Origin: Deltaproteobacteria bacterium | GTDB taxonomy: Bacteria; Desulfobacterota; Desulfomonilia; UBA1062 | Assembly: GCA_018434685.1 (NCBI GenBank) | Contig: JAHDOV010000015.1 | Coordinates: 1-64,000 of the forward strand | DNA length: 64,000 bases | Reading direction: 5' to 3' | Shown here: positions 9,152 to 17,535 of the stretch, piece after piece | How the letters are laid out: the number at the start of each line of letters is the position of its first letter | Position numbering within the stretch: the stretch's first letter is position 1 | Program-made: the position numbers and the translations under genes | The notes under the pieces: model-generated | What the model was told of the DNA's origin: nothing | The model's database searches: none | Seen by the model: the letters and a program-made list of their open reading frames with translations, nothing else

Positions 9152-9487
9152 CTTAATCTCCCTCATTACCTATTTCTACCATTGGCCGATCAGCCGGATC
9201 GGCCAGCATCTGTAGTTTCCTACGTTCACTATACCTAACCCTGCAGACGAACATGTCACCAGGCACCCAATTGCCAGGAAATCACCCAAATATTCTCAAC
9301 CAGTGCCTCCCTCCACTGATCATCTCGATTATAGCATTATCAGTGAGGCCTGCAACAAATTAATTATGGATATCATCCGTAATAAAAGTAGGTTAGAGCC
9401 AATAAAGGGGGACGCCCTGAGCTTATTGATTTGAACCGGCTACGATCTGATCTGACAAGAGGTCGCCTTTCTGAAGGGACAGTTGGA
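9152..9487. other. Intergenic, hairpin in lipoprotein leader
   Basis: Contains a perfect 8-bp stem GGCCGATC/GATCGGCC with a 5-nt loop (9184-9204) about 30 bp upstream of the lipoprotein start, within its likely leader. No gene was recognised in the rest. Confidence 0.45.
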
Positions 9488-9543
9488 GCCTTGTAATGCC
9501 GCCTTAATAAGCAGGGATGATGAACATGTTATAATGCAAGACC
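9488..9543 (+). repeat. Dispersed repeat A, copy 1
   Basis: A ~56-bp element reading CTTGTAATGCCGCC ... GCAGGGATGATGAACATG ... AATGCAAGACCCTATT. Well-preserved copies (10500-10556 and 12120-12176) end in inverted GGTCTTGC/GCAAGACC. This copy lies directly after the 3' end of the duplicated secreted protein gene. Confidence 0.75.
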
Positions 9544-9553
9544 CTATTCACAA

Positions 9554-9919
9554 TTATAAATCAGTATGATTAATCTGATACGGGTTCTTCCTTGCTTCCG
9601 CTGCCGAATCGGCCCGAGAAATTCCCAGCCTGCTGCAGTTAACCCATTCGTCACTACCTCGATACCTAAAGTACAATTTAAGGGGGGTGGTTTTCCCTTC
9701 CGCCATGTACCTGACCATTTCGTTTCCGCCCGGCCACACTGTCCCGGAAACTATCGGCGTACCATGCTGGGTTATCATGAACTCTATCACCCGACGGTTG
9801 TGATCCCTGTTCTGGAACAGCGTGTAGTGCTCCGAACCGGCAAACAAGGCAGTGTCATAAGCACACAGGAAAAGAACGATCAGTAACAGGTGACGCCATT
9901 TGTTCATGAATCTTGTCAA
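9554..9919 (-). CDS. Small secreted protein, paralog 1 of a duplicated pair
   Basis: About 121 residues with an N-terminal signal peptide (HLLLIVLFLCAYDTALFAGS) and a compact ~90-residue secreted part. No family was recognised. It is about 90% identical to the product of 12187-12552. No ATG is well placed, but GGAGG is spaced 7 nt from a TTG at 9919 in both paralogs, so TTG is the likely start; an ATG four codons later is the alternative. Substitutions between the copies are scattered and neither copy has a stop or frameshift, which suggests that both remain functional. It is bracketed by repeat A copies. Confidence 0.65.
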   Translation of the reverse strand: MTRFMNKWRHLLLIVLFLCAYDTALFAGSEHYTLFQNRDHNRRVIEFMITQHGTPIVSGTVWPGGNEMVRYMAEGKTTPLKLYFRYRGSDEWVNCSRLGISRADSAAEARKNPYQINHTDL

Positions 9920-10143
9920 AACGTATCCTCCCCCCTGAATGTGTTTCAAACCCTGTTCCGGTGGTCCCGGGTAAGGTTATTCATTTTGAATATTTAGGCC
10001 AAAAACACCAAACCATTCTCTGCTGTTTCATGGAGAACCCGAATACAAATACAACACCTGTCAGTTTCATTCAATTAGTTTCATTACTCAATTTAATGGT
10101 CGTACCAAGTTAACTTGTTGATATATAAGCATTGGAGAGTTGG

Positions 10144-10198
10144 GGTCATGTAATGCCACATCAATTAGCAGGGGATGAAAATGTTATAATGCATGACC
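10144..10198 (+). repeat. Dispersed repeat A, copy 2 (diverged)
   Basis: TCATGTAATGCCACATCAATTAG and ATGTTATAATGCATGACCCT match repeat A with several changes. It is immediately followed by repeat B copy 2. Confidence 0.65.
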
Positions 10199-10205
10199 CT
10201 ATTTT

Positions 10206-10318
10206 AATTGTTCTTAGAACCCCCTTTTCGGGGCCAAAATGGGCCCTCTAAGCCTTAAAAAGGGGCTTTTTTTGATCAATTATCCAGGTATTCCAATTGG
10301 TTGTCTTGGTCCGACCCC
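10206..10318 (+). repeat. Dispersed repeat B, copy 2
   Basis: About 113 bp: TTGTTCTTAGAACCCCCTTT, a CCCC-TTTT-CGGGG mini-hairpin, AAGCC...GGGGCTTTTTTT (terminator-like on the plus strand), then GATCAATTATCCAGG and TTGGTTGTCTTGGTCCGACC. Nearly the same as copy 3 at 12592-12709. Confidence 0.85.
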
Positions 10319-10341
10319 ATTTTCATTTTCATTTTCGTTCC

Positions 10342-10461
10342 CTCACGGTAGAAGAGGCACGCTCGTTAACTGAGATGCTTTCACTCAATGACCTGACGGT
10401 TGAGCCTGATGCGGGGGGTATAAACTGGACTATGGAAGCAACAAAACCTCTTTGGCCATAA
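10342..10461 (+). pseudogene. Repeat C, copy 1: remnant of a protein C-terminus
   Basis: A frame reading LTVEEARSLTEMLSLNDLTV, then EPDAGGINWTMEATKPLWP and a stop, with no start codon or ribosome-binding site upstream. The same C-terminal peptide recurs at 11959-12078 and 13060-13125 in the same frame and ends at a TAA in all three. The peptide conservation suggests that the repeat came from the 3' end of a once-functional gene that has been copied around this region. The parent family was not recognised. Confidence 0.55.
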
Positions 10462-10499
10462 CCGAACCCTGCAGCTCTGCTTCTTGGGTCACACTATCA

Positions 10500-10556
10500 G
10501 GTCTTGCAATGCCGCAGGAATGAGCAGGGATGATGAACAGGTGCTAAGGCAAGACC
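10500..10556 (+). repeat. Dispersed repeat A, copy 3
   Basis: 57 bp ending in inverted 8-bp repeats GGTCTTGC/GCAAGACC. It directly follows repeat C copy 1 and its conserved 3' flank. Confidence 0.8.
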
Positions 10557-10766
10557 CTATTAATTTGAAACACACATGGTTCTGTCCTCTGATCACTTGA
10601 ATCAAACGTTCCGGGCATTATCATTTCTTTTAAAATGAGACATCATCAGTAATGAAAGGGCCGGAATACAAACTTTTCTGCCCTGCCATCCCCTTTGAAT
10701 AACCGATCCTTTTATAATCGATGATGCACGGTACAGGGACAACATGAAATACATGAGGAGGAAATA

Positions 10767-11690
10767 ATGAAAAAGATCATCATACTCTTAATAGTGGCAA
10801 GTATAAGTACGGTTGCATGGTCCCAGATGGGAGGAGGCAGGATGGGAGGACCATACCAGCAGATCTATCCTCTGCCGAACGCAGCTGAAGATGATGCGCA
10901 ACTCTCTGAGCTGATTCACATAAGCAGGGGCGGGCAGCTCTATGACAACTGGTGGAAAACTACAGTCGATACTGAAAAGCCCGAGAAAGATCACCCTCTG
11001 TGGAAAAAGCAGAATACGAACAACCGCAGCGGATATGATACCTTCCGCTGCAAGGAATGTCACGGATGGGACTATCTGGGTAAGGACGGAGCATATGGCC
11101 GGGGCTCACACTATACCGGGTTCACAGGCGTTTACAGTGCATCTTTGAAGATGTCCATCGATGAACTGGAAAAGATTAACAGGGGCAGTACCGGTAAAGA
11201 GCACGATTTTACAGGATATATAAGCGATGAAGACATTGCTGATCTTGCACTATTCCTTAAGAAAGGCCTCATTGAAACCAGCGGCATGGTCAGTGATGAG
11301 GGGGTTCCCATAGGCGGCAATGCAAGGACCGGGAGCTATATTTTCCGGAGAAACTGCACCCATATGTGTCATGGACCAGCAGGAACAGCTTTAAACTTCG
11401 GAGAAGCTGACAAGCCCGAGTTTGTGGGAACAATTGCCTATGAAAACCCATGGGAATTCATTCACAAGGTCCGATCAGGACAGCCCGGCACTACAATGCC
11501 TTCTGCAATCATCAATGAATGGAGCGAAAAGGATATCCTCGACATACTGACATTTGCCCGTACCCTTCCCAGGGACACCTCTGAGATCGGATGGTGGAGG
11601 GGTTTCTGGGGAGGAATGGGACACCGTAGAATGATGCACCAGGATTACCGGCCGGGCAGCGGAAGGGGATTCGGGCCGAGCCTGGATTGA
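10767..11690 (+). CDS. Exported c-type cytochrome with CXXCH and CX3CH heme sites
   Basis: A 307-residue protein with a signal peptide (about 1-19) and two cytochrome c-like modules. The first has CKECH at residues 95-99 and the second has C-T-H-M-C-H at 197-202, which is CX3CH rather than CXXCH. A Met in GTTMPSA (about 246) is a candidate axial ligand of the second heme. The protein is Gly/Met/Arg-rich at both ends. GAGGAGG precedes the ATG. It acts in the periplasm in electron transfer; partners are not encoded nearby. It sits between two copies of the A/B/C repeat unit. Confidence 0.88.
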   Translation: MKKIIILLIVASISTVAWSQMGGGRMGGPYQQIYPLPNAAEDDAQLSELIHISRGGQLYDNWWKTTVDTEKPEKDHPLWKKQNTNNRSGYDTFRCKECHGWDYLGKDGAYGRGSHYTGFTGVYSASLKMSIDELEKINRGSTGKEHDFTGYISDEDIADLALFLKKGLIETSGMVSDEGVPIGGNARTGSYIFRRNCTHMCHGPAGTALNFGEADKPEFVGTIAYENPWEFIHKVRSGQPGTTMPSAIINEWSEKDILDILTFARTLPRDTSEIGWWRGFWGGMGHRRMMHQDYRPGSGRGFGPSLD

Positions 11691-11854
11691 CTGTCTTATT
11701 CAGGATTTGAACAAACCCGTATCGGCTTTCAACCGATTAAGTAATTACGGTTCTTCTCAGTGAAGCATCCTTCTATAGGTTGCATCTTTTTCACAGCCCT
11801 TTGTTCTCACCACGAAGGACGCGTTGAGCACGAAAAGAATCATAGGAGAATATT

Positions 11855-11949
11855 AGGGACGTCCGTGATATTTGGACATTTCATCTATCTGTTCTCAAAT
11901 AATTTTTCGAAGATAAAAACCAAATGTCAATATTTCACGGACGTCCCCT
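11855..11949. repeat. Long imperfect inverted repeat (GGGACGTCC ends)
   Basis: AGGGACGTCCGTGATATTT on the left is mirrored by a right arm reading AATATTTCACGGACGTCCCC at 11929-11948, with a ~45-bp A+T-rich centre. The outer GACGTCC core resembles the palindromes at 2181-2258 and 5624-5690. It could form a cruciform or hairpin and is a candidate non-autonomous REP/MITE-like element. Confidence 0.7.
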
Positions 11950-11958
11950 GTTTTCACC

Positions 11959-12078
11959 CTCACGGCAGAAGAGGCACGCTCGTTGACTGAGACGCTTTCA
12001 CTCAATGACCTGACGGTTGAGCCTGATGCGGGGGGTATAAACTGGACTATGAAAGCGACAAAACCTCTTTGTTCATAA
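11959..12078 (+). pseudogene. Repeat C, copy 2: remnant of a protein C-terminus
   Basis: The frame reads LTAEEARSLTETLSLNDLTV, then EPDAGGINWTMKATKPLCS and a stop. It differs from copy 1 by a few residues but keeps the frame and stop. No start or ribosome-binding site was seen. It is followed by repeat A copy 4. Confidence 0.55.
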
Positions 12079-12119
12079 CCTGACCCTGCAGCGCTGCTTC
12101 TTGAGTCACAGTATTATCA

Positions 12120-12176
12120 GGTCTTGCAATGCCGCAGGAATAAGCAGGGATGATGAACATGTTCTAATGCAAGATC
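12120..12176 (+). repeat. Dispersed repeat A, copy 4
   Basis: Differs from copy 3 at only a few positions, with ends GGTCTTGCAAT and ATGCAAGATC. It is followed directly by the 3' end of the second small secreted protein gene, as repeat A copy 1 is for the first. Confidence 0.8.
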
Positions 12177-12186
12177 CTATTCACAA

Positions 12187-12552
12187 TTATAAATCAGTGT
12201 GATCAATCTGATACGGGTTTTTCCTTGCTTCCGCTGCTGAATCGGCGCGAGAAATTCCCAGCCTGCTGCAGTTAACCCATTCGTCACTACCTCGATACCG
12301 GAAGTACAATTTAAGGGGGGTGGTTTTCCCTTCCGCTATATATGTGACCATTTTGTCTCTGCCCGGCCACACTGTCCCTGAAGCTATCGGGGTACCATGC
12401 TGGGTTATCATGAACTCTATCACCCGCTGGTTGTGATCCCTGTTCTGGAACAACGTGTAGTGCTCCGAACTCGCGAACACGTCAGTGTCATAAGCACACA
12501 GGAAAAAAACGATCAGTAACAGGTGGCGCCATTTGTTCATGAACCTTGTCAA
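12187..12552 (-). CDS. Small secreted protein, paralog 2 of a duplicated pair
   Basis: About 121 residues, about 90% identical to the product of 9554-9919. It has the same TTG start spaced from GGAGG and the same signal peptide layout. The mature parts share FQNRDHN.RVIEFMITQHGT and a fully conserved C-terminal half except for one Asn/Asp change. The shared flanking repeats on both sides show that the gene and its flanks were duplicated together. Function is unknown. Confidence 0.65.
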   Translation of the reverse strand: MTRFMNKWRHLLLIVFFLCAYDTDVFASSEHYTLFQNRDHNQRVIEFMITQHGTPIASGTVWPGRDKMVTYIAEGKTTPLKLYFRYRGSDEWVNCSRLGISRADSAAEARKNPYQIDHTDL

Positions 12553-12591
12553 AACGTATCCTCCCTCAATGTTATAATGCAAAACCCTATT

Positions 12592-12709
12592 TCAATTGTT
12601 CTTAAAACACCCTTTTTAGGGTCAAAATGGGCCTTCTAAGTCTCTAAAAGGGGCTTTTTTTGATCAATTATCCAGGTATTTCAGTTGGTTATCTTGGTCC
12701 GACCCTCCA
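12592..12709 (+). repeat. Dispersed repeat B, copy 3
   Basis: Nearly matches copy 2. It includes AAAAGGGGCTTTTTTTGATC, which could end transcription on the plus strand. A short repeat A remnant (GTTATAATGCAAAACCCTAT) lies just before it at about 12570-12589. Confidence 0.8.
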
Positions 12710-12781
12710 TTTATTCAAAAATTAAAAGCTGAAGGCACCGGTGAAAAGATCGGTCAAGTAGAGAAGGTTCTGGAGAAGTAG
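12710..12781 (+). pseudogene. Gene-tail remnant
   Basis: A frame with no start, reading FIQKLKAEGTGEKIGQVEKV followed by LEK and a stop, looks like the C-terminal helix of a lost gene cut off by repeat B. Chance is not excluded. Confidence 0.35.
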
Positions 12782-12867
12782 TGAGCGCGGCCTATCATGT
12801 ACCAGTGGTTAACGGAAGAATCCGAAATTGACAGAGATGTTCAACAAAGTAAAAGGAGGAAATTACC

Positions 12868-12960
12868 ATGGATACTACAACTCTTATCATTCTCATCGTC
12901 GTGTTGTTCCTAGTGTTCGGCGGGGGTGGCGGTTACTATTGGTCTAGAAGACGGAGGTAA
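12868..12960 (+). CDS. Small membrane protein, 30 aa
   Basis: A short frame with a strong AAGGAGGA ribosome-binding site 7 nt before the ATG. The product has one hydrophobic helix (TTLIILIVVLFLVF, about residues 3-16), then GGGGG, YYW and a basic SRRRR tail, so it is predicted to be a single-pass inner-membrane peptide. Similar tiny Gly-rich membrane peptides are common next to stress-response genes in Proteobacteria (from memory of the family type, not checked). A disrupted gene follows immediately. Confidence 0.7.
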   Translation: MDTTTLIILIVVLFLVFGGGGGYYWSRRRR

Positions 12961-12971
12961 AGTTATGAGTT

Positions 12972-13125
12972 ATGGCTTCTAAGAACATAGCCATTTATGG
13001 AATCTATCCGAACCGGCCAATGGTTTAAAAAGGCGGTTGAAGAATTGAAAGATGAAATAACGGTTGAGCCTGATGCGGGGGGTATAAACTGGACTATGAA
13101 AGCAACAAAACCTCTTTCTTCATAA
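12972..13125 (+). pseudogene. Frameshifted small gene fused to repeat C copy 3
   Basis: ATG at 12972 opens MASKNIAIYGIYPNRPMV and then hits a stop. The next frame continues the expected sense as KKAVEELKDE, and at 13060 runs into repeat C (TVEPDAGGINWTMKATKPLS then stop at 13123-13125). The start resembles a family of small stress-type proteins that begin ...GIY..R..VE.AV..L...GF. It appears that the gene suffered a frameshift and lost its 3' part where repeat C joins. A 42-residue frame from 12997 could still be translated, but lacks a ribosome-binding site. Confidence 0.5.
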
Positions 13126-13190
13126 TCTGACCGTGCAGCTCTGCTTCTTGAGGTACACTCTTATCAGGTCTTGTAATGCCACCGTATTCT
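13060..13190 (+). repeat. Repeat C copy 3 plus truncated repeat A
   Basis: From ACGGTTGAGCCTGATGCGGG onward the sequence matches the other C copies through the TAA and conserved 3' flank, then GGTCTTGTAATGCC, the first part of repeat A, before diverging at about 13190. It marks the left edge of the repeat cluster next to the integron cargo. Confidence 0.7.
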
Positions 13191-13239: not shown

Positions 13240-14199
13240 TTAGAGTTCAACCGAACCATTAAGCTCTCTTTCATTGACCGCTGAAATAAATGAGCACGCT
13301 ACAAAGATATACTCAAGACCTGTCGAATCTCGTATATCCCAAGCAGCACTGACTTCGGGATCTGTACCATGATCAGCTGCATTACGAATATGTCCAAGAT
13401 ATTTACTTATATTTAAGATTTTTTTTGGCATTACTGAACTATTATTATGAAGTTCTTCTGCTTTAGAATTTATTCCATTTCTACCACTAAGATTAACTCC
13501 TATCCTACTACCTAGTGCATCCATAAAAGATTCAATTGCATTTCCTGCTGATACAACCGCCCCACGCCCATCATTATTTCGAGCTCGTTGGATCGCATTT
13601 GAGAGGGGTATGATAACATAATCACGTGATATACGATCCGCTGCTCGCTGGCCTATCCTTTGACGGATAAGTTCTTCTGCTGAAGCATCGTTTGCACATC
13701 CTTCTGTTAAAGCACGGAGATCATAGATATCTGTGTCTTCTCGTGGTCGATAACCTCCCCCACCTTCAGCGATGAGAGCCTGACTATATTGCCCAAGACT
13801 CAATAGTGTTTCTTTGACATCATCATGGTGTGCATCAAGTTCTAGAAGTCTTTTCACTTGTCTTGCCGCTGTAGTAGCATCTCCTGTTGCAATTAGACGC
13901 TCTCGGAATTTGGTAAAAGGTTCATATGCTTCCAATAATACTCGAAGGGCTGTTGCTTTACGTTGCTGGTTTGCTGTTGCAAATGATCTGCATAAGGGGC
14001 TAATTGCTTCAAAAAGATTTCCAGAAGTTCTGAGAAGACCAAGATCGGATGCCAAAGATAACGCTGCTTCTGCATTTAACTTCGTCAACTGATTGAAATC
14101 AGCTACATACTCTGCATCCCGAGTTGACATAGCCAGATAGATTGCATCGACTGAAGCAACCACAGCTTCAGCAGTCGCTCGCCAGAAGGGTCTAGACAT
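13240..14199 (-). CDS. HEPN/Abi_C-like C-terminal domain protein, candidate toxin or effector
   Basis: A 319-residue, mostly helical protein. Residues ~170-310 follow the HEPN/Abi_C pattern: an AIQRARN...GAVVSAGNAIESFM helix pair, then ILNISKYLGHIRNAADHG. The last part contains an RX4H motif (R272 to H277), the hallmark of many HEPN ribonucleases. The N-terminal ~160 residues are unassigned. It is encoded 5 bp after a winged-helix-like protein gene on the same strand, so the two are almost certainly co-expressed. Low G+C compared with the host suggests acquisition. A role in abortive infection or as an RNase toxin is an inference. The domain call is from motif pattern, not a profile search. 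Confidence 0.6.
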   Translation of the reverse strand: MSRPFWRATAEAVVASVDAIYLAMSTRDAEYVADFNQLTKLNAEAALSLASDLGLLRTSGNLFEAISPLCRSFATANQQRKATALRVLLEAYEPFTKFRERLIATGDATTAARQVKRLLELDAHHDDVKETLLSLGQYSQALIAEGGGGYRPREDTDIYDLRALTEGCANDASAEELIRQRIGQRAADRISRDYVIIPLSNAIQRARNNDGRGAVVSAGNAIESFMDALGSRIGVNLSGRNGINSKAEELHNNSSVMPKKILNISKYLGHIRNAADHGTDPEVSAAWDIRDSTGLEYIFVACSFISAVNERELNGSVEL

Positions 14200-14204
14200 A
14201 GTTC

Positions 14205-14912
14205 TTACTCTTGAGCATGCTCTTTACCTAGGGCCTCGATTAGCATCCTAAGCTTTGGCCCCAAAGACTCTAATTCTTCTGGTCGACAATCGACTCGAAT
14301 TTGAATCACAAGTGATGCTGAGGGACTGACTTGTGTAAGAGGAATTTTAACTTTTTGTTTAGATTCGGATAATACAGAAATAGGGCGTTGGGTAGCTGCA
14401 TGTATTTCCGTTATTGGCTCTGATTCTACTATAGCAATGATCTTTCCATCTTCTTCTCTAATAAGAGCTGCAGCCTTAAGCACATCAATAATAGTTCCTG
14501 CACCAGTCATTGAGCGTGGATTTTTAGGAAGACCAGCTGTGTAAGCAACATGATTACGGAGGGCATAGGGGTCCATTCCTCCACGAATTCGAATGGCAGA
14601 AATTATTTTCTTTAAGAATTCATTACCTACAACTATTGTAGACCAAGCTTTTTCTATTTGGTCTGGCATATCAAAATCTAGTGCTTGAGCAAGAGATTTA
14701 CCCTCAGAAGTAAGCGTTTTTCTCTTACCTCCTGATAGAATTCCTATTGAGAGAAGAAATCCGTTGTTGCGGCTTACTTGAGTTGGATCCATCCCAGCTC
14801 TATCAGCTACGTCTTTCGGCACAGCATCATCAGGTGCATGTCCATAAGCTCTTATGATTTTAACTAATTCAGCATATGAAGATCCTGGAAACTTGAAGCT
14901 TTCTTCTGTCAT
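14205..14912 (-). CDS. Winged-helix-like protein, partner of the HEPN-like protein
   Basis: A 235-residue protein. Residues ~10-80 resemble a winged-helix fold: YAELVKIIRAYG, VPKDVADRAGMDPTQVSRNN and then GFLLSIGILSGGKRKTLTSE, like the recognition helix and wing. The middle may form a second similar module (SAIRIRGGMDPYALRNHVAY ... GAGTIIDVLKAAALIREEDG). The C-terminal ~60 residues predict beta strands followed by a helix. A good GGGAGGT ribosome-binding site precedes the ATG. Given the 5-bp gap to the next gene it may be an antitoxin, sensor or regulator of that protein. No named family is assigned with confidence. Confidence 0.55.
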   Translation of the reverse strand: MTEESFKFPGSSYAELVKIIRAYGHAPDDAVPKDVADRAGMDPTQVSRNNGFLLSIGILSGGKRKTLTSEGKSLAQALDFDMPDQIEKAWSTIVVGNEFLKKIISAIRIRGGMDPYALRNHVAYTAGLPKNPRSMTGAGTIIDVLKAAALIREEDGKIIAIVESEPITEIHAATQRPISVLSESKQKVKIPLTQVSPSASLVIQIRVDCRPEELESLGPKLRMLIEALGKEHAQE

Positions 14913-15047: not shown

Positions 15048-15108
15048 GTCAAATGTTGGGCATCAGTGGCGCGGAACCGCCGCGTCCGTTTGCATGCCTT
15101 TGTTAGGT
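15048..15108 (-). other. attC: attC-like integron recombination site
   Basis: Read on the minus strand, the 61 bp begin with the R'' core ACCTAAC (15102-15108, matches RYYYAAC). They then show GGCAT ... ATGCC and CGCGG-CGGTT-CCGCG as nested inverted arms, and end CAAC-ATTTGAC where AAC-GTTRRRY is expected. Size and layout fit an attC. The stop codon of the upstream (p)ppGpp synthetase gene (15103-15105) lies inside the R'' core, as in classic gene cassettes. The R' core is mutated (G to A at the cleavage position, plus one further mismatch), so recombination here is probably weak or lost. Confidence 0.7.
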
Positions 15109-16170
15109 CAAGTTCTTCTTCATTTCTTCCCATGCCTTTAGCACTTGTATTTGAGCTTTTATCGCCTCTATCTTGCTTGAATCGCTATCAACACCTGAGA
15201 TTGCTGAAATACTGGCAATAGTTTCGAAATTAGTAGGATTTCGATCCTCAAGATCCTTATAAGTTGAATGAATTAGATCTATATTATGTTTAGTGCTGAT
15301 AGTTCTTAAGTCACCAACAGTTCTTATTGAATGGCTGAAAAGGATTTTAAGCAGACCATCAATTTCTTTTTGTGCACAACCTATTCCACCTTCACTAAGT
15401 ACTGCGGGTAGGTTTTCAGCATTCAGAGGGTTATCTTCCTTATATATACTTTCTTCCTGATATCGTGAGAGTTCTTCATATAGTAGATTAAAATGTTCGT
15501 CGATTGATGTGAGTTCTGAGCTGATAATTTTAAATTGCTTTTTTACAGCAAAGGATGTTTTTTTACCCGGTTTGTAACCCAAAACATGTTCTATTTCTCC
15601 CCAAACATCCTCAGTAATCGTTCTGACTTGTATTTCAAACCATGGACGATCAATCTTGGGGACTACTGATTCTCTCAGTCTGACTATGTAATGGATTGAT
15701 GCATAACCACTATCTTTCTGTTTTCGCAGAACATGGTTCAGTCCAAATGTTTCAAGTATTTCCTGACTAAGATATGCTATCGGAGGGCTTGCTGATGATA
15801 TTTCAATGTCATCGCTGTTCCGTAACTCTTTATCTATCATTGGTAGGTTAGCTAAGAAGTATACTAATATTCTACCTGCAACAGCGTCGTGCATTTTCTT
15901 TACACTATTGATGCACAGCCCTTCTGTAAACTCATGAGTATTCCGAAGGATCTTATCTACCACACTCTCGGGCCGCTTTATTCTAGAAATTGCTCTTTGT
16001 ACTGGCGAAGGCGATGGCAATCGAGAAAGACGAGGCACTAAAGACCAATAATTATGATCTCGCCATTTTTCGAAAACTTTCCTCAATTCATAATTCGTTG
16101 GCTTTAATACATCCAGAATATATTGCTCATAATTTATTAAAAATGATTTTTGCTTTTCAACATCTGTCAT
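15103..16170 (-). CDS. Stand-alone RelA/SpoT-type (p)ppGpp synthetase in an integron cassette
   Basis: A 355-residue protein with one RelA/SpoT nucleotidyltransferase domain (about 40-240) and no HD hydrolase, TGS or ACT domain. Conserved synthetase motifs are present: RIKRPESVVDK (63-73), HDAVAGR with the metal-binding Asp (94-100), GYASIH (155-160) and EIQVRT (179-184) followed by EIEH. It is expected to transfer pyrophosphate from ATP to GDP/GTP, or possibly to tRNA as some toxic small alarmone synthetases do. The C-terminal ~115 residues are an unassigned helical domain. TTGGAG six bases before the ATG at 16170 decides the start; the frame extends in-frame to 16215. It is the first cassette after the integrase, and A+T-rich. 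No obvious antitoxin gene is adjacent. Confidence 0.85.
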   Translation of the reverse strand: MTDVEKQKSFLINYEQYILDVLKPTNYELRKVFEKWRDHNYWSLVPRLSRLPSPSPVQRAISRIKRPESVVDKILRNTHEFTEGLCINSVKKMHDAVAGRILVYFLANLPMIDKELRNSDDIEISSASPPIAYLSQEILETFGLNHVLRKQKDSGYASIHYIVRLRESVVPKIDRPWFEIQVRTITEDVWGEIEHVLGYKPGKKTSFAVKKQFKIISSELTSIDEHFNLLYEELSRYQEESIYKEDNPLNAENLPAVLSEGGIGCAQKEIDGLLKILFSHSIRTVGDLRTISTKHNIDLIHSTYKDLEDRNPTNFETIASISAISGVDSDSSKIEAIKAQIQVLKAWEEMKKNLT

Positions 16171-16184
16171 GATTTTCTCCAATG

Positions 16185-16191
16185 ACCCAAC
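16185..16191 (-). other. attI/cassette junction core site (GTTGGGT)
   Basis: The minus strand reads GATT-GTTGGGT-CATTGGAG just upstream of the synthetase start, matching the GTTRRRY core where cassettes join attI. It pairs with the ACCTAAC core at the other end of the cassette with one mismatch, as expected for the two ends of one cassette. The cassette would therefore run from about 16190 to about 15055. Confidence 0.6.
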
Positions 16192-16291
16192 AATCACCAT
16201 TCCTAAATCCTGCATGCGAACAGGCTATCAGGCAGGCAATTGCAACTATATAATCAAATTACAATACACTCTCTCCTTTTTACGGTTTTGC

Positions 16292-16320
16292 AATTTACAT
16301 CATTATCACGCATCACGCAA
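16292..16320 (-). promoter_or_regulatory. Candidate cassette promoter (Pc)
   Basis: On the minus strand TTGCGT (16315-16320), a 17-bp spacer and TAAATT (16292-16297) form a plausible sigma-70 promoter about 115 bp before the synthetase gene. AAAAGGAGAGAG follows shortly after but leads only to very short frames. Confidence 0.35.
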
Positions 16321-16476
16321 TGGTTATTTCATAGAATTCCCCTGTGATGAAAGAGAGTTAGACCATTTTTAACCTGTTTGATACGATCCAGATGCCCCTG
16401 CCGAAAGCACAGAACCACCCGGTTTAACGTATTTAGGCAGAAGATCTTCCACCTAGTGAAATATATCTTGCCTTTT

Positions 16477-16505
16477 GTGGAAATATAATTAAAGTATTAT
16501 AATTA
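16477..16505 (+). promoter_or_regulatory. Candidate integrase promoter
   Basis: TTGTGG (16477-16482), a 17-bp spacer and a perfect TATAAT (16500-16505) lie 28 bp before the integrase ATG. Confidence 0.5.
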
Positions 16506-16533
16506 AATTGCATTGTAATTTTTAAATGTTCGT

Positions 16534-17535
16534 ATGAAGGCGTCCAAACCATTACCAGAAAAAGGTGTATCCGTGCAAGAGACTTTGCTGGAGAAGCTCA
16601 GCCATGTCCTGCGGCTCAGGCACTATTCCGCCCGCACCGAGCAGGCCTATTGCTCGTGGGTGAGGCGCTATGTCCTGTTCCACAACCGGAAGGACCCGCG
16701 CGAGATGGGCAAGGTTGAGATCGAGGCATTCCTCGCCTACCTGGAGAACACCCGTAAGGTTTCGCTTGTAACGAAAAACCAGGCGCTCCAGGCGCTCCTG
16801 TTCCTGTACCGCGAGGTGCTCCACATGCCGGTCGTGGTGGCCCTCCATGCAGAGCGCGAGCAGAAACCTGTGCGCCCTGCCCTGGTGATACTGACCCGCG
16901 ACGAGGCCAGGAGGGTCATCTCGTGCCTGAGCGCCACGTATCGGCTCATGGCTAAGCTGCTCTACGGCAGTGGGTTGCGGCTTACGGAGTGCACCACGCT
17001 CAGGGTCAAGGATATCGATTTTGACCGTGAGCGCATCGTGGTGCGTGGAGGCACGGAGCTCAGGGATCGGGTCACCATCCTGCCTGCAGCCGTGAAGCAG
17101 CCCCTGGCAGAACACCTTGAGCGGATGAAGATACAGCACGAGCAGGACCTTGCCCAGGGCTACGGGGCCGTGCCCATACCGGGCGATCTCCCGGAGAAAT
17201 CCCCCCGGCAGAGCGCGGCATGGGGCTGGCAGTATGTGTTTCAGGCGGCTTCGCTGTCCACCGACCCGGAGACTGGGGCTGTCATGCGCCACCACATCCA
17301 CAAGAACAGCCTGCAGAAGGCCGTGAAACAGGCAGTCAAGCTCTCTGGCATCGACAAGCCTGCCGGGTGCCAGACCTTCAGGCACAGCTTTGCCGCCCAC
17401 CTCATCGAGGCAGGCAACGACATCAGGATCGTGCAGGACCTGCTCGGCCACAGGAACGTGAACTCCACCATGGTCTACCGGCAGCCGGCACAGCGCACCA
17501 ATCAGCAGGTGATAAGTCCGATGGATGAAAGATAG
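16534..17535 (+). CDS. intI: Integron integrase IntI with altered catalytic residues
   Basis: A 333-residue tyrosine recombinase. The N-terminal SAM-like domain has LRLRHYSARTEQAYCSWVRR (about 26-45). The integron-specific insert is at about 218-263: LPEKSPRQSAAWGWQYVF, then STDPETGAVMRHHIHKNSLQ, which separates IntI from Xer proteins. Catalytic R149 (GSGLRL), R283 (TFRHSF), H306 (LLGH) and nucleophile Y315 (TMVY) are present. However, the beta-hairpin Lys normally in GKGxKDR is T174 (GGTELRDR), and the His of HxLR is Q280 (CQTFR). The frame is full length without stops and G+C-rich, unlike the cassettes it faces. It would recombine attI and attC sites if active. The start lacks a clear ribosome-binding site; a GTG at codon 14 is an alternative. 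Confidence 0.9.
   Translation: MKASKPLPEKGVSVQETLLEKLSHVLRLRHYSARTEQAYCSWVRRYVLFHNRKDPREMGKVEIEAFLAYLENTRKVSLVTKNQALQALLFLYREVLHMPVVVALHAEREQKPVRPALVILTRDEARRVISCLSATYRLMAKLLYGSGLRLTECTTLRVKDIDFDRERIVVRGGTELRDRVTILPAAVKQPLAEHLERMKIQHEQDLAQGYGAVPIPGDLPEKSPRQSAAWGWQYVFQAASLSTDPETGAVMRHHIHKNSLQKAVKQAVKLSGIDKPAGCQTFRHSFAAHLIEAGNDIRIVQDLLGHRNVNSTMVYRQPAQRTNQQVISPMDER

What the first reader, a model, noticed from the sequence alone, without database searches (positions are those of the whole stretch)
15103..16170. Hydrolase-less RelA/SpoT-type synthetase as a mobile cassette with an extra C-terminal domain
Seen: all main synthetase motifs and no HD domain, plus ~115 unassigned C-terminal residues. 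There is no small antitoxin gene next to it. Known: some single-domain synthetases are toxins (toxSAS) or phage sensors (CapRel type). Inferred: the C-terminal domain might be a built-in antitoxin or a phage-protein sensor.
Basis: partly seen in the sequence, partly recalled or inferred. Interest (0 to 1): 0.75.

Follow-up and report, generated by a model that had tools for sequence, protein, structure and literature searches.

The report
Integron-cassette alarmone synthetase with portable tail
A growth-arrest (alarmone-type) enzyme without its usual 'off' half is carried as the first gene cassette of a bacterial integron, and its extra tail is a helical module also found on an unrelated cell-wall enzyme, so it is a real, mobile, untested regulator rather than a proven phage-sensing toxin.

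Summary
It is cassette 1 of a chromosomal integron: a divergent integron integrase (16534-17535), a GTTGGGT boundary 15 nt before the ATG, and an attC whose first box overlaps the stop codon. The same attC type recurs in at least six genomes of the family. The attC's second box is degenerate, so this copy may be locked.

Five other full-length relatives (34-64% identical) sit in a tRNA-Leu-flanked insert, a prophage, a plasmid and two chromosomal loci. The C-terminal region is predicted with high confidence as a compact helical domain. It is not the CapRel antitoxin: CapRel's profile matches only the synthetase, and the YXXY motif is absent. The domain recurs as a tail on GlmU enzymes (profile-profile 99.1%), so it is a portable module, not a dedicated antitoxin. 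The synthetase fold is closest to the (p)ppGpp makers RelQ/RelP.

Most likely: an accessory, C-terminally gated alarmone synthetase used for conditional growth arrest, possibly in phage defence. Toxicity, product and trigger are untested.

The parts
15103..16170 (-). Small alarmone synthetase, 355 aa, gene of cassette 1
   Evidence: start chosen by cassette boundary and GGAG
15562..15987 (-). RelA_SpoT synthetase domain (residues 62-203)
   Evidence: PF04607 59.7 bits; 60.4 bits in own genome
15106..15432 (-). C-terminal helical domain (residues 247-355)
   Evidence: AF2 pLDDT about 85-97; homologous to GlmU tails
15048..15108 (-). attC site: R'' ACCTAAC overlaps the stop codon; imperfect hairpin; R' degenerate (ATTTGAC)
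   Evidence: 80-86% identical sites elsewhere in the family and own genome; fold z -2.29
16185..16191 (-). Cassette/attI junction G^TTGGGT
   Evidence: sequence
16192..16533 (.). attI / leader region between intI and cassette 1; candidate Pc at 16525-16496 (minus)
   Evidence: TTAAAA-18-TATAAT, 10 of 12; the number of promoter-like sites in the region is not above shuffles
16534..17535 (+). Integron integrase IntI, divergent
   Evidence: TIGR02249 369.7 bits, cut-off 265
13240..14912 (-). Low-GC two-gene unit downstream (235 aa + 319 aa, HEPN-like R-N-A-A-D-H motif): possible second cassette or island
   Evidence: DUF4145 only at E 0.029; motif reading is inference

Best explanation
It is an accessory small alarmone synthetase carried as an integron gene cassette. 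The synthetase domain probably makes (p)ppGpp or a close 3'-pyrophosphorylated nucleotide. The C-terminal helical module gates it, by an intramolecular or oligomer contact, or by binding a cellular or phage ligand. Under the trigger it forces growth arrest. As a first-position cassette it is probably expressed from the integron's own promoter, so it works as an on-demand arrest gene. Shown: fold family, intact motifs, lack of HD, integron context, sporadic and mobile distribution, and a conserved portable C-terminal domain. Inferred: product, gating, trigger and promoter use. Phage defence is the likeliest selective reason but is unproven.
For: Synthetase motifs intact. The model's synthetase domain aligns best to RelQ/SAS1 and RelP/SAS2 (Z 16-18), against 11.8 for CapRel, 9.7 for Tas1 and 6.2 for FaRel2. 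C-terminal domain pLDDT about 85-97. The family is monophyletic (SH-aLRT 99) and apart from RelP/RelQ and CapRel. Integron. Relatives lie in a tRNA-Leu-flanked insert, in a prophage between repressor genes and integrase and on a plasmid. No conserved neighbour. The own genome has a separate long RSH that could turn over the product (inference).
Against: No functional test. Two relatives sit at a shared chromosomal site, which fits an ordinary regulator as well. The C-terminal domain on GlmU shows that it need not sense stress or phage. The attC R' box is degenerate, so present mobility of this copy is doubtful. The model has pTM 0.59, so the placement of the domains, and hence gating, cannot be read from it.
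Confidence: 0.48

Rival explanations
1. Fused toxin-antitoxin working like CapRel: the C-terminal domain holds a translation-blocking tRNA pyrophosphokinase inactive until a phage protein binds it.
For: Same layout and length as CapRel (373 aa). Solo gene on mobile DNA, including a prophage defence-type position. Weak synthetase match to the CapRel profile. CapRel works this way (PMC9712102).
Against: CapRel profile does not extend to the C-terminal region. No YXXY motif there. The EH..YK motif is kept, whereas CapRelSJ46 lacks it. The synthetase fold is nearer RelQ/RelP. The C-terminal domain also occurs on GlmU.
Confidence: 0.2
2. Ordinary stress or metabolic alarmone synthetase, not defence: the C-terminal module senses a metabolite or localises the enzyme, and the cassette gives a starvation advantage.
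For: Shared chromosomal site in two Zixiibacteriota genomes. The domain is shared with the housekeeping enzyme GlmU. The synthetase is RelQ/RelP-like.
Against: Rare and patchy. Found on an integron, a prophage, a plasmid and a tRNA-flanked insert.
Confidence: 0.27
3. The C-terminal domain is only an oligomerisation or stability tail with no regulatory role.
For: Small helical portable domain. The GlmU tail could serve assembly.
Against: Strong conservation of specific residues (L249, N253, P255, L258, G262, C265) across six diverse members.
Confidence: 0.05

Closest known systems
CapRel (fused toxSAS-antitoxin, e.g. CapRelSJ46; PADLOC PDC-S33)
   Same: N-terminal synthetase plus C-terminal domain, one ORF of about 355-373 aa, no partner, mobile DNA
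   Different: C-terminal domain unrelated by profile, no YXXY, synthetase motif EH..YK kept, 23% identity over the synthetase only (E 0.015)
RelQ/YjbM (SAS1) and RelP/YwaC (SAS2)
   Same: Synthetase fold and motifs; best structural matches (Z 16-18)
   Different: These are about 210-240 aa without the C-terminal domain; ours has a 15-aa insert before the G-loop and scores 49.9 against the 320-bit RelQ cut-off
Solo ~350-375 aa SASs of phages and plasmids (PHROG 9640/4773/2211, unknown function)
   Same: Length and layout; weak C-terminal similarity in register (score 24.3 against at most 12.0 in 40 column shuffles)
   Different: Only 16-25% identity overall; the tree places our family outside them
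C-terminal tails of GlmU in one family (f8) of the same phylum
   Same: C-terminal domain is homologous (hhalign 99.1%, E 5.6e-19)
   Different: Fused to a cell-wall precursor enzyme, beside glmS
Integron gene cassettes with attC of this lineage
   Same: IntI, attI junction, attC sequence class
   Different: Second attC box degenerate in this copy

Membership tests
Small alarmone synthetase (SAS, RSH superfamily) | RelA_SpoT synthetase domain with catalytic motifs | tested here: met
   PF04607 59.7 bits; motifs invariant
Small alarmone synthetase (SAS, RSH superfamily) | No HD hydrolase, TGS or ACT domains | tested here: met
   No such Pfam match
Small alarmone synthetase (SAS, RSH superfamily) | Makes (p)ppGpp or (p)ppApp | not testable with these tools
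   needs enzymology
CapRel / PDC-S33 | Full-length profile match including the C-terminal antitoxin domain | tested here: not met
   33.7 bits over residues 60-224 only, against 290.1 for CapRelSJ46 over 11-370
CapRel / PDC-S33 | YXXY motif in the C-terminal domain | tested here: not met
   absent after residue 240 in all six family members (reading); motif role from PMC9712102
CapRel / PDC-S33 | C-terminal pseudo-zinc-finger fold | tested here: inconclusive
   fold comparison covered residues 17-234 only; no prediction jobs left for the domain alone
CapRel / PDC-S33 | Truncated toxin toxic; tRNA pyrophosphorylation; phage trigger | not testable with these tools
   bench work
Bicistronic toxSAS toxin-antitoxin (FaRel, FaRel2, PhRel) | Adjacent antitoxin gene | tested here: not met
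   no shared neighbour among four loci
RelQ/YjbM equivalog (NF053588) | Score over curated cut-off 320 | tested here: not met
   49.9 bits
Integron gene cassette | Integron integrase adjacent and divergent | tested here: met
   TIGR02249 369.7 bits
Integron gene cassette | GTTRRRY junction upstream and attC downstream | tested here: met
   GTTGGGT 16191-16185 and attC 15108-15048
Integron gene cassette | Complete R' box of attC (recombination-competent) | tested here: inconclusive
   ATTTGAC instead of GTTRRRY
Core housekeeping gene | Present in most relatives with conserved synteny | tested here: not met
   1 of 395 genomes of the phylum; two Zixiibacteriota members share synteny

The most novel reading that the evidence does not exclude
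A new class of single-gene immune or arrest switch carried on integron cassettes: a (p)ppGpp-type synthetase gated by a non-CapRel helical sensor module that cells also graft onto GlmU, which would link phage or stress sensing, alarmone output and cell-wall precursor synthesis through one shared ligand.
Probability: 0.17. Interest if true: 0.75.

Novelty: new variant of a known kind. Interest (0 to 1): 0.47.

Why it matters
SASs have been studied as housekeeping enzymes, toxin-antitoxin toxins and the CapRel phage sensor. Here is a separate small clade on an integron, a prophage, a plasmid and a tRNA-flanked insert, whose regulatory-looking tail is not an antitoxin of the known type and is shared with a cell-wall enzyme. 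Finding what that tail binds would show whether alarmone synthesis can be gated by a general-purpose module, and whether integrons deliver growth-arrest genes on demand.

Tried and rejected
First AF2 run with 3 sequences was useless (pLDDT 44.8); the 44-sequence run solved this. Full-length relatives in phage genomes: none; in viral contigs: one. C-terminal domain alone against PDB sequences: nothing; Pfam: only sub-threshold DUF6210, L544_helical and GlnE, and DUF4332 (a helix-hairpin-helix type, from memory) at E 0.0028 for a GlmU tail, not significant enough to name. The Rhizobium tblastn hit (E 0.4-1) is chance, inside a xanthine-dehydrogenase-like ORF. Fold searches list no clear match for the C-terminal part, but that part was barely tested. 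Strict attC scan of the window with exact R'/R'' found none, and a relaxed one gave no convincing site; the site was recognised through family-wide copies. attC sequence in plasmids: no match. No Pseudomonadota genome of 398 (full protein) or 299 (domain) matched the family (the one hit is a 218-aa-frame SAS matched over residues 47-221). Literature: no report found of a RelA/SpoT integron cassette, but coverage of subscription journals is thin. Not considered further: LAGLIDADG hit (E 0.012, chance).

Full report
Observation. The ORF 15103-16170 lies on the minus strand and encodes 355 aa. PF04607 matches residues 62-203 with 59.7 bits and no HD domain is present. The motif residues R63, K65, K73, D95, R100, GY155-156, H160, E179, Q181, R183, W190, H195, Y199 and K200 are invariant across a 42-member alignment of diverse SASs. 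GC is about 38% in a 55-60% neighbourhood. The own genome also has one long RSH.

Integron. The divergent gene at 16534-17535 is an integron integrase (TIGR02249, 369.7 bits, cut-off 265). Reading the minus strand from intI, the leader ends at G^TTGGGT (16191-16185), followed by GGAG and the ATG at 16170. The stop codon lies inside ACCTAAC, the R'' box, followed by an imperfect hairpin. The same site type is found at 80-86% identity (up to 94% over shorter stretches) in five genomes of the family and at two other places in the own genome, mostly with both RYYYAAC and GTTRRRY boxes recognisable. In the window copy the R' box reads ATTTGAC, so recombination may be impaired. Integrases above the cut-off occur in 11 of 24 family genomes, with two in this one. 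The gene is therefore the first gene cassette of a chromosomal integron. A promoter-like site at 16525-16496 on the minus strand could be Pc, but the number of such sites in the region is not above chance.

Relatives. Five full-length relatives were found. L005 (Zixiibacteriota, 64%) lies in a 1.46-kb insert between two 208-bp direct repeats that hold the 5' part of tRNA-Leu(taa). L010 (55-56%) is a prophage contig, with the gene between a repressor/ImmA-like block and a tyrosine integrase. L008 (42%) is a Persicobacter plasmid. L085 (34%) and L086 (37%) are Zixiibacteriota-phylum chromosomes, each beside the same outer-membrane beta-barrel gene. In L005 and L010 the stop codon also overlaps ACCTAAC or lies within it, which hints at cassette ancestry; this is inference. 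The gene is rare: 1 of 395 genomes in its own phylum, 0 of 398 Pseudomonadota, 3 of 132 in the Zixiibacteriota set. No other protein is shared among the neighbourhoods of the window, L005, L008 and L010.

Wider family. A loose viral scan found 48 contigs. Apart from L010 itself these carry solo SASs, most of them 330-378 aa, matching PHROGs of unknown function. Having a roughly 110-aa region after the synthetase is thus a common layout in mobile SASs, not a peculiarity of this gene. The tree puts the window family in its own clade (SH-aLRT 99), apart from RelP/RelQ, CapRel and the viral group.

C-terminal domain. AF2 on 44 sequences gives pLDDT 81.3, with about 85-97 over residues 247-355, all helical; pTM 0.59 means domain placement is not reliable. 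A profile of four C-terminal regions found the domain at the end of GlmU in five genomes of one family of the same phylum (E down to 1.5e-13). Profile-profile comparison gives 99.1% and E 5.6e-19. The combined profile resembles the viral SAS C-terminal regions only weakly (23.7%, score 24.3), but above all 40 column-shuffled controls (highest 12.0) and in register. The domain is therefore a portable module and is not restricted to toxin control.

CapRel test. PADLOC PDC-S33 is CapRel: CapRelSJ46 scores 290 bits full length, the window protein 33.7 bits over the synthetase only. BLASTP between the two gives 23% over the synthetase at E 0.015. The YXXY motif that blocks the ATP site in CapRel and FaRel2 antitoxins (PMC9712102, PMC11782079) is absent from the C-terminal region. 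The EH..YK motif of the synthetase is kept here and lacking in CapRelSJ46. Structure comparison ranks RelQ/RelP first (Z 16-18), then CapRel 11.8, Tas1 9.7 and FaRel2 6.2, over the synthetase.

Mechanism. The best-supported reading is an accessory alarmone synthetase gated by its C-terminal module and used for conditional growth arrest. Shown: catalytic motifs, fold class, discrete C-terminal domain, cassette context, patchy mobile spread. Inferred: that it makes (p)ppGpp, that the tail gates it, that the trigger is phage or stress, and that it is read from Pc. The CapRel-like reading is still possible as 'works like', but membership is not met. A plain stress enzyme is the other serious rival.

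Verdict. Interesting, not extraordinary, until tested.

Noticed in passing
L080-L084 (family f8 of the window's phylum): GlmU carries an extra C-terminal helical domain homologous to the tail of the window synthetase, beside glmS where the flank is held; function unknown.
   Followed up: partly
13240-14912: Low-GC gene pair after the cassette: a 235-aa protein and a 319-aa protein with a HEPN-type motif (IRNAADHG) and weak DUF4145 similarity; it may be a toxin or defence pair. One distant plasmid relative in Haladaptatus.
   Followed up: partly
9482-13161: Dispersed repeats of 67, 138, 158 and 300 nt with palindromic ends (GGTCTTGCA..TGCAAGACC) and two copies of a 131-aa secreted-looking protein; they look like a small mobile or amplified repeat.
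   Followed up: no
1-738: Three head-to-tail copies of a 246-nt unit (81-94% alike).
   Followed up: no
L005:97-1977: 208-bp direct repeats holding the 5' part of tRNA-Leu(taa) flank a 1.46-kb insert whose only gene is the synthetase: a very small tRNA-associated insertion without its own integrase.
   Followed up: partly
L004:964-2142: In a genome of the same phylum, a RelA/SpoT synthetase fused to a repeat region that looks like TPRs (392 aa), another solo SAS with a different tail.
   Followed up: no
L020, L021, L029: Solo SASs on a Vibrio filamentous phage, a 3.5-kb Klebsiella plasmid and a Bacteroides phage-like plasmid beside the terminase gene: good test cases for mobile SAS function.
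   Followed up: partly
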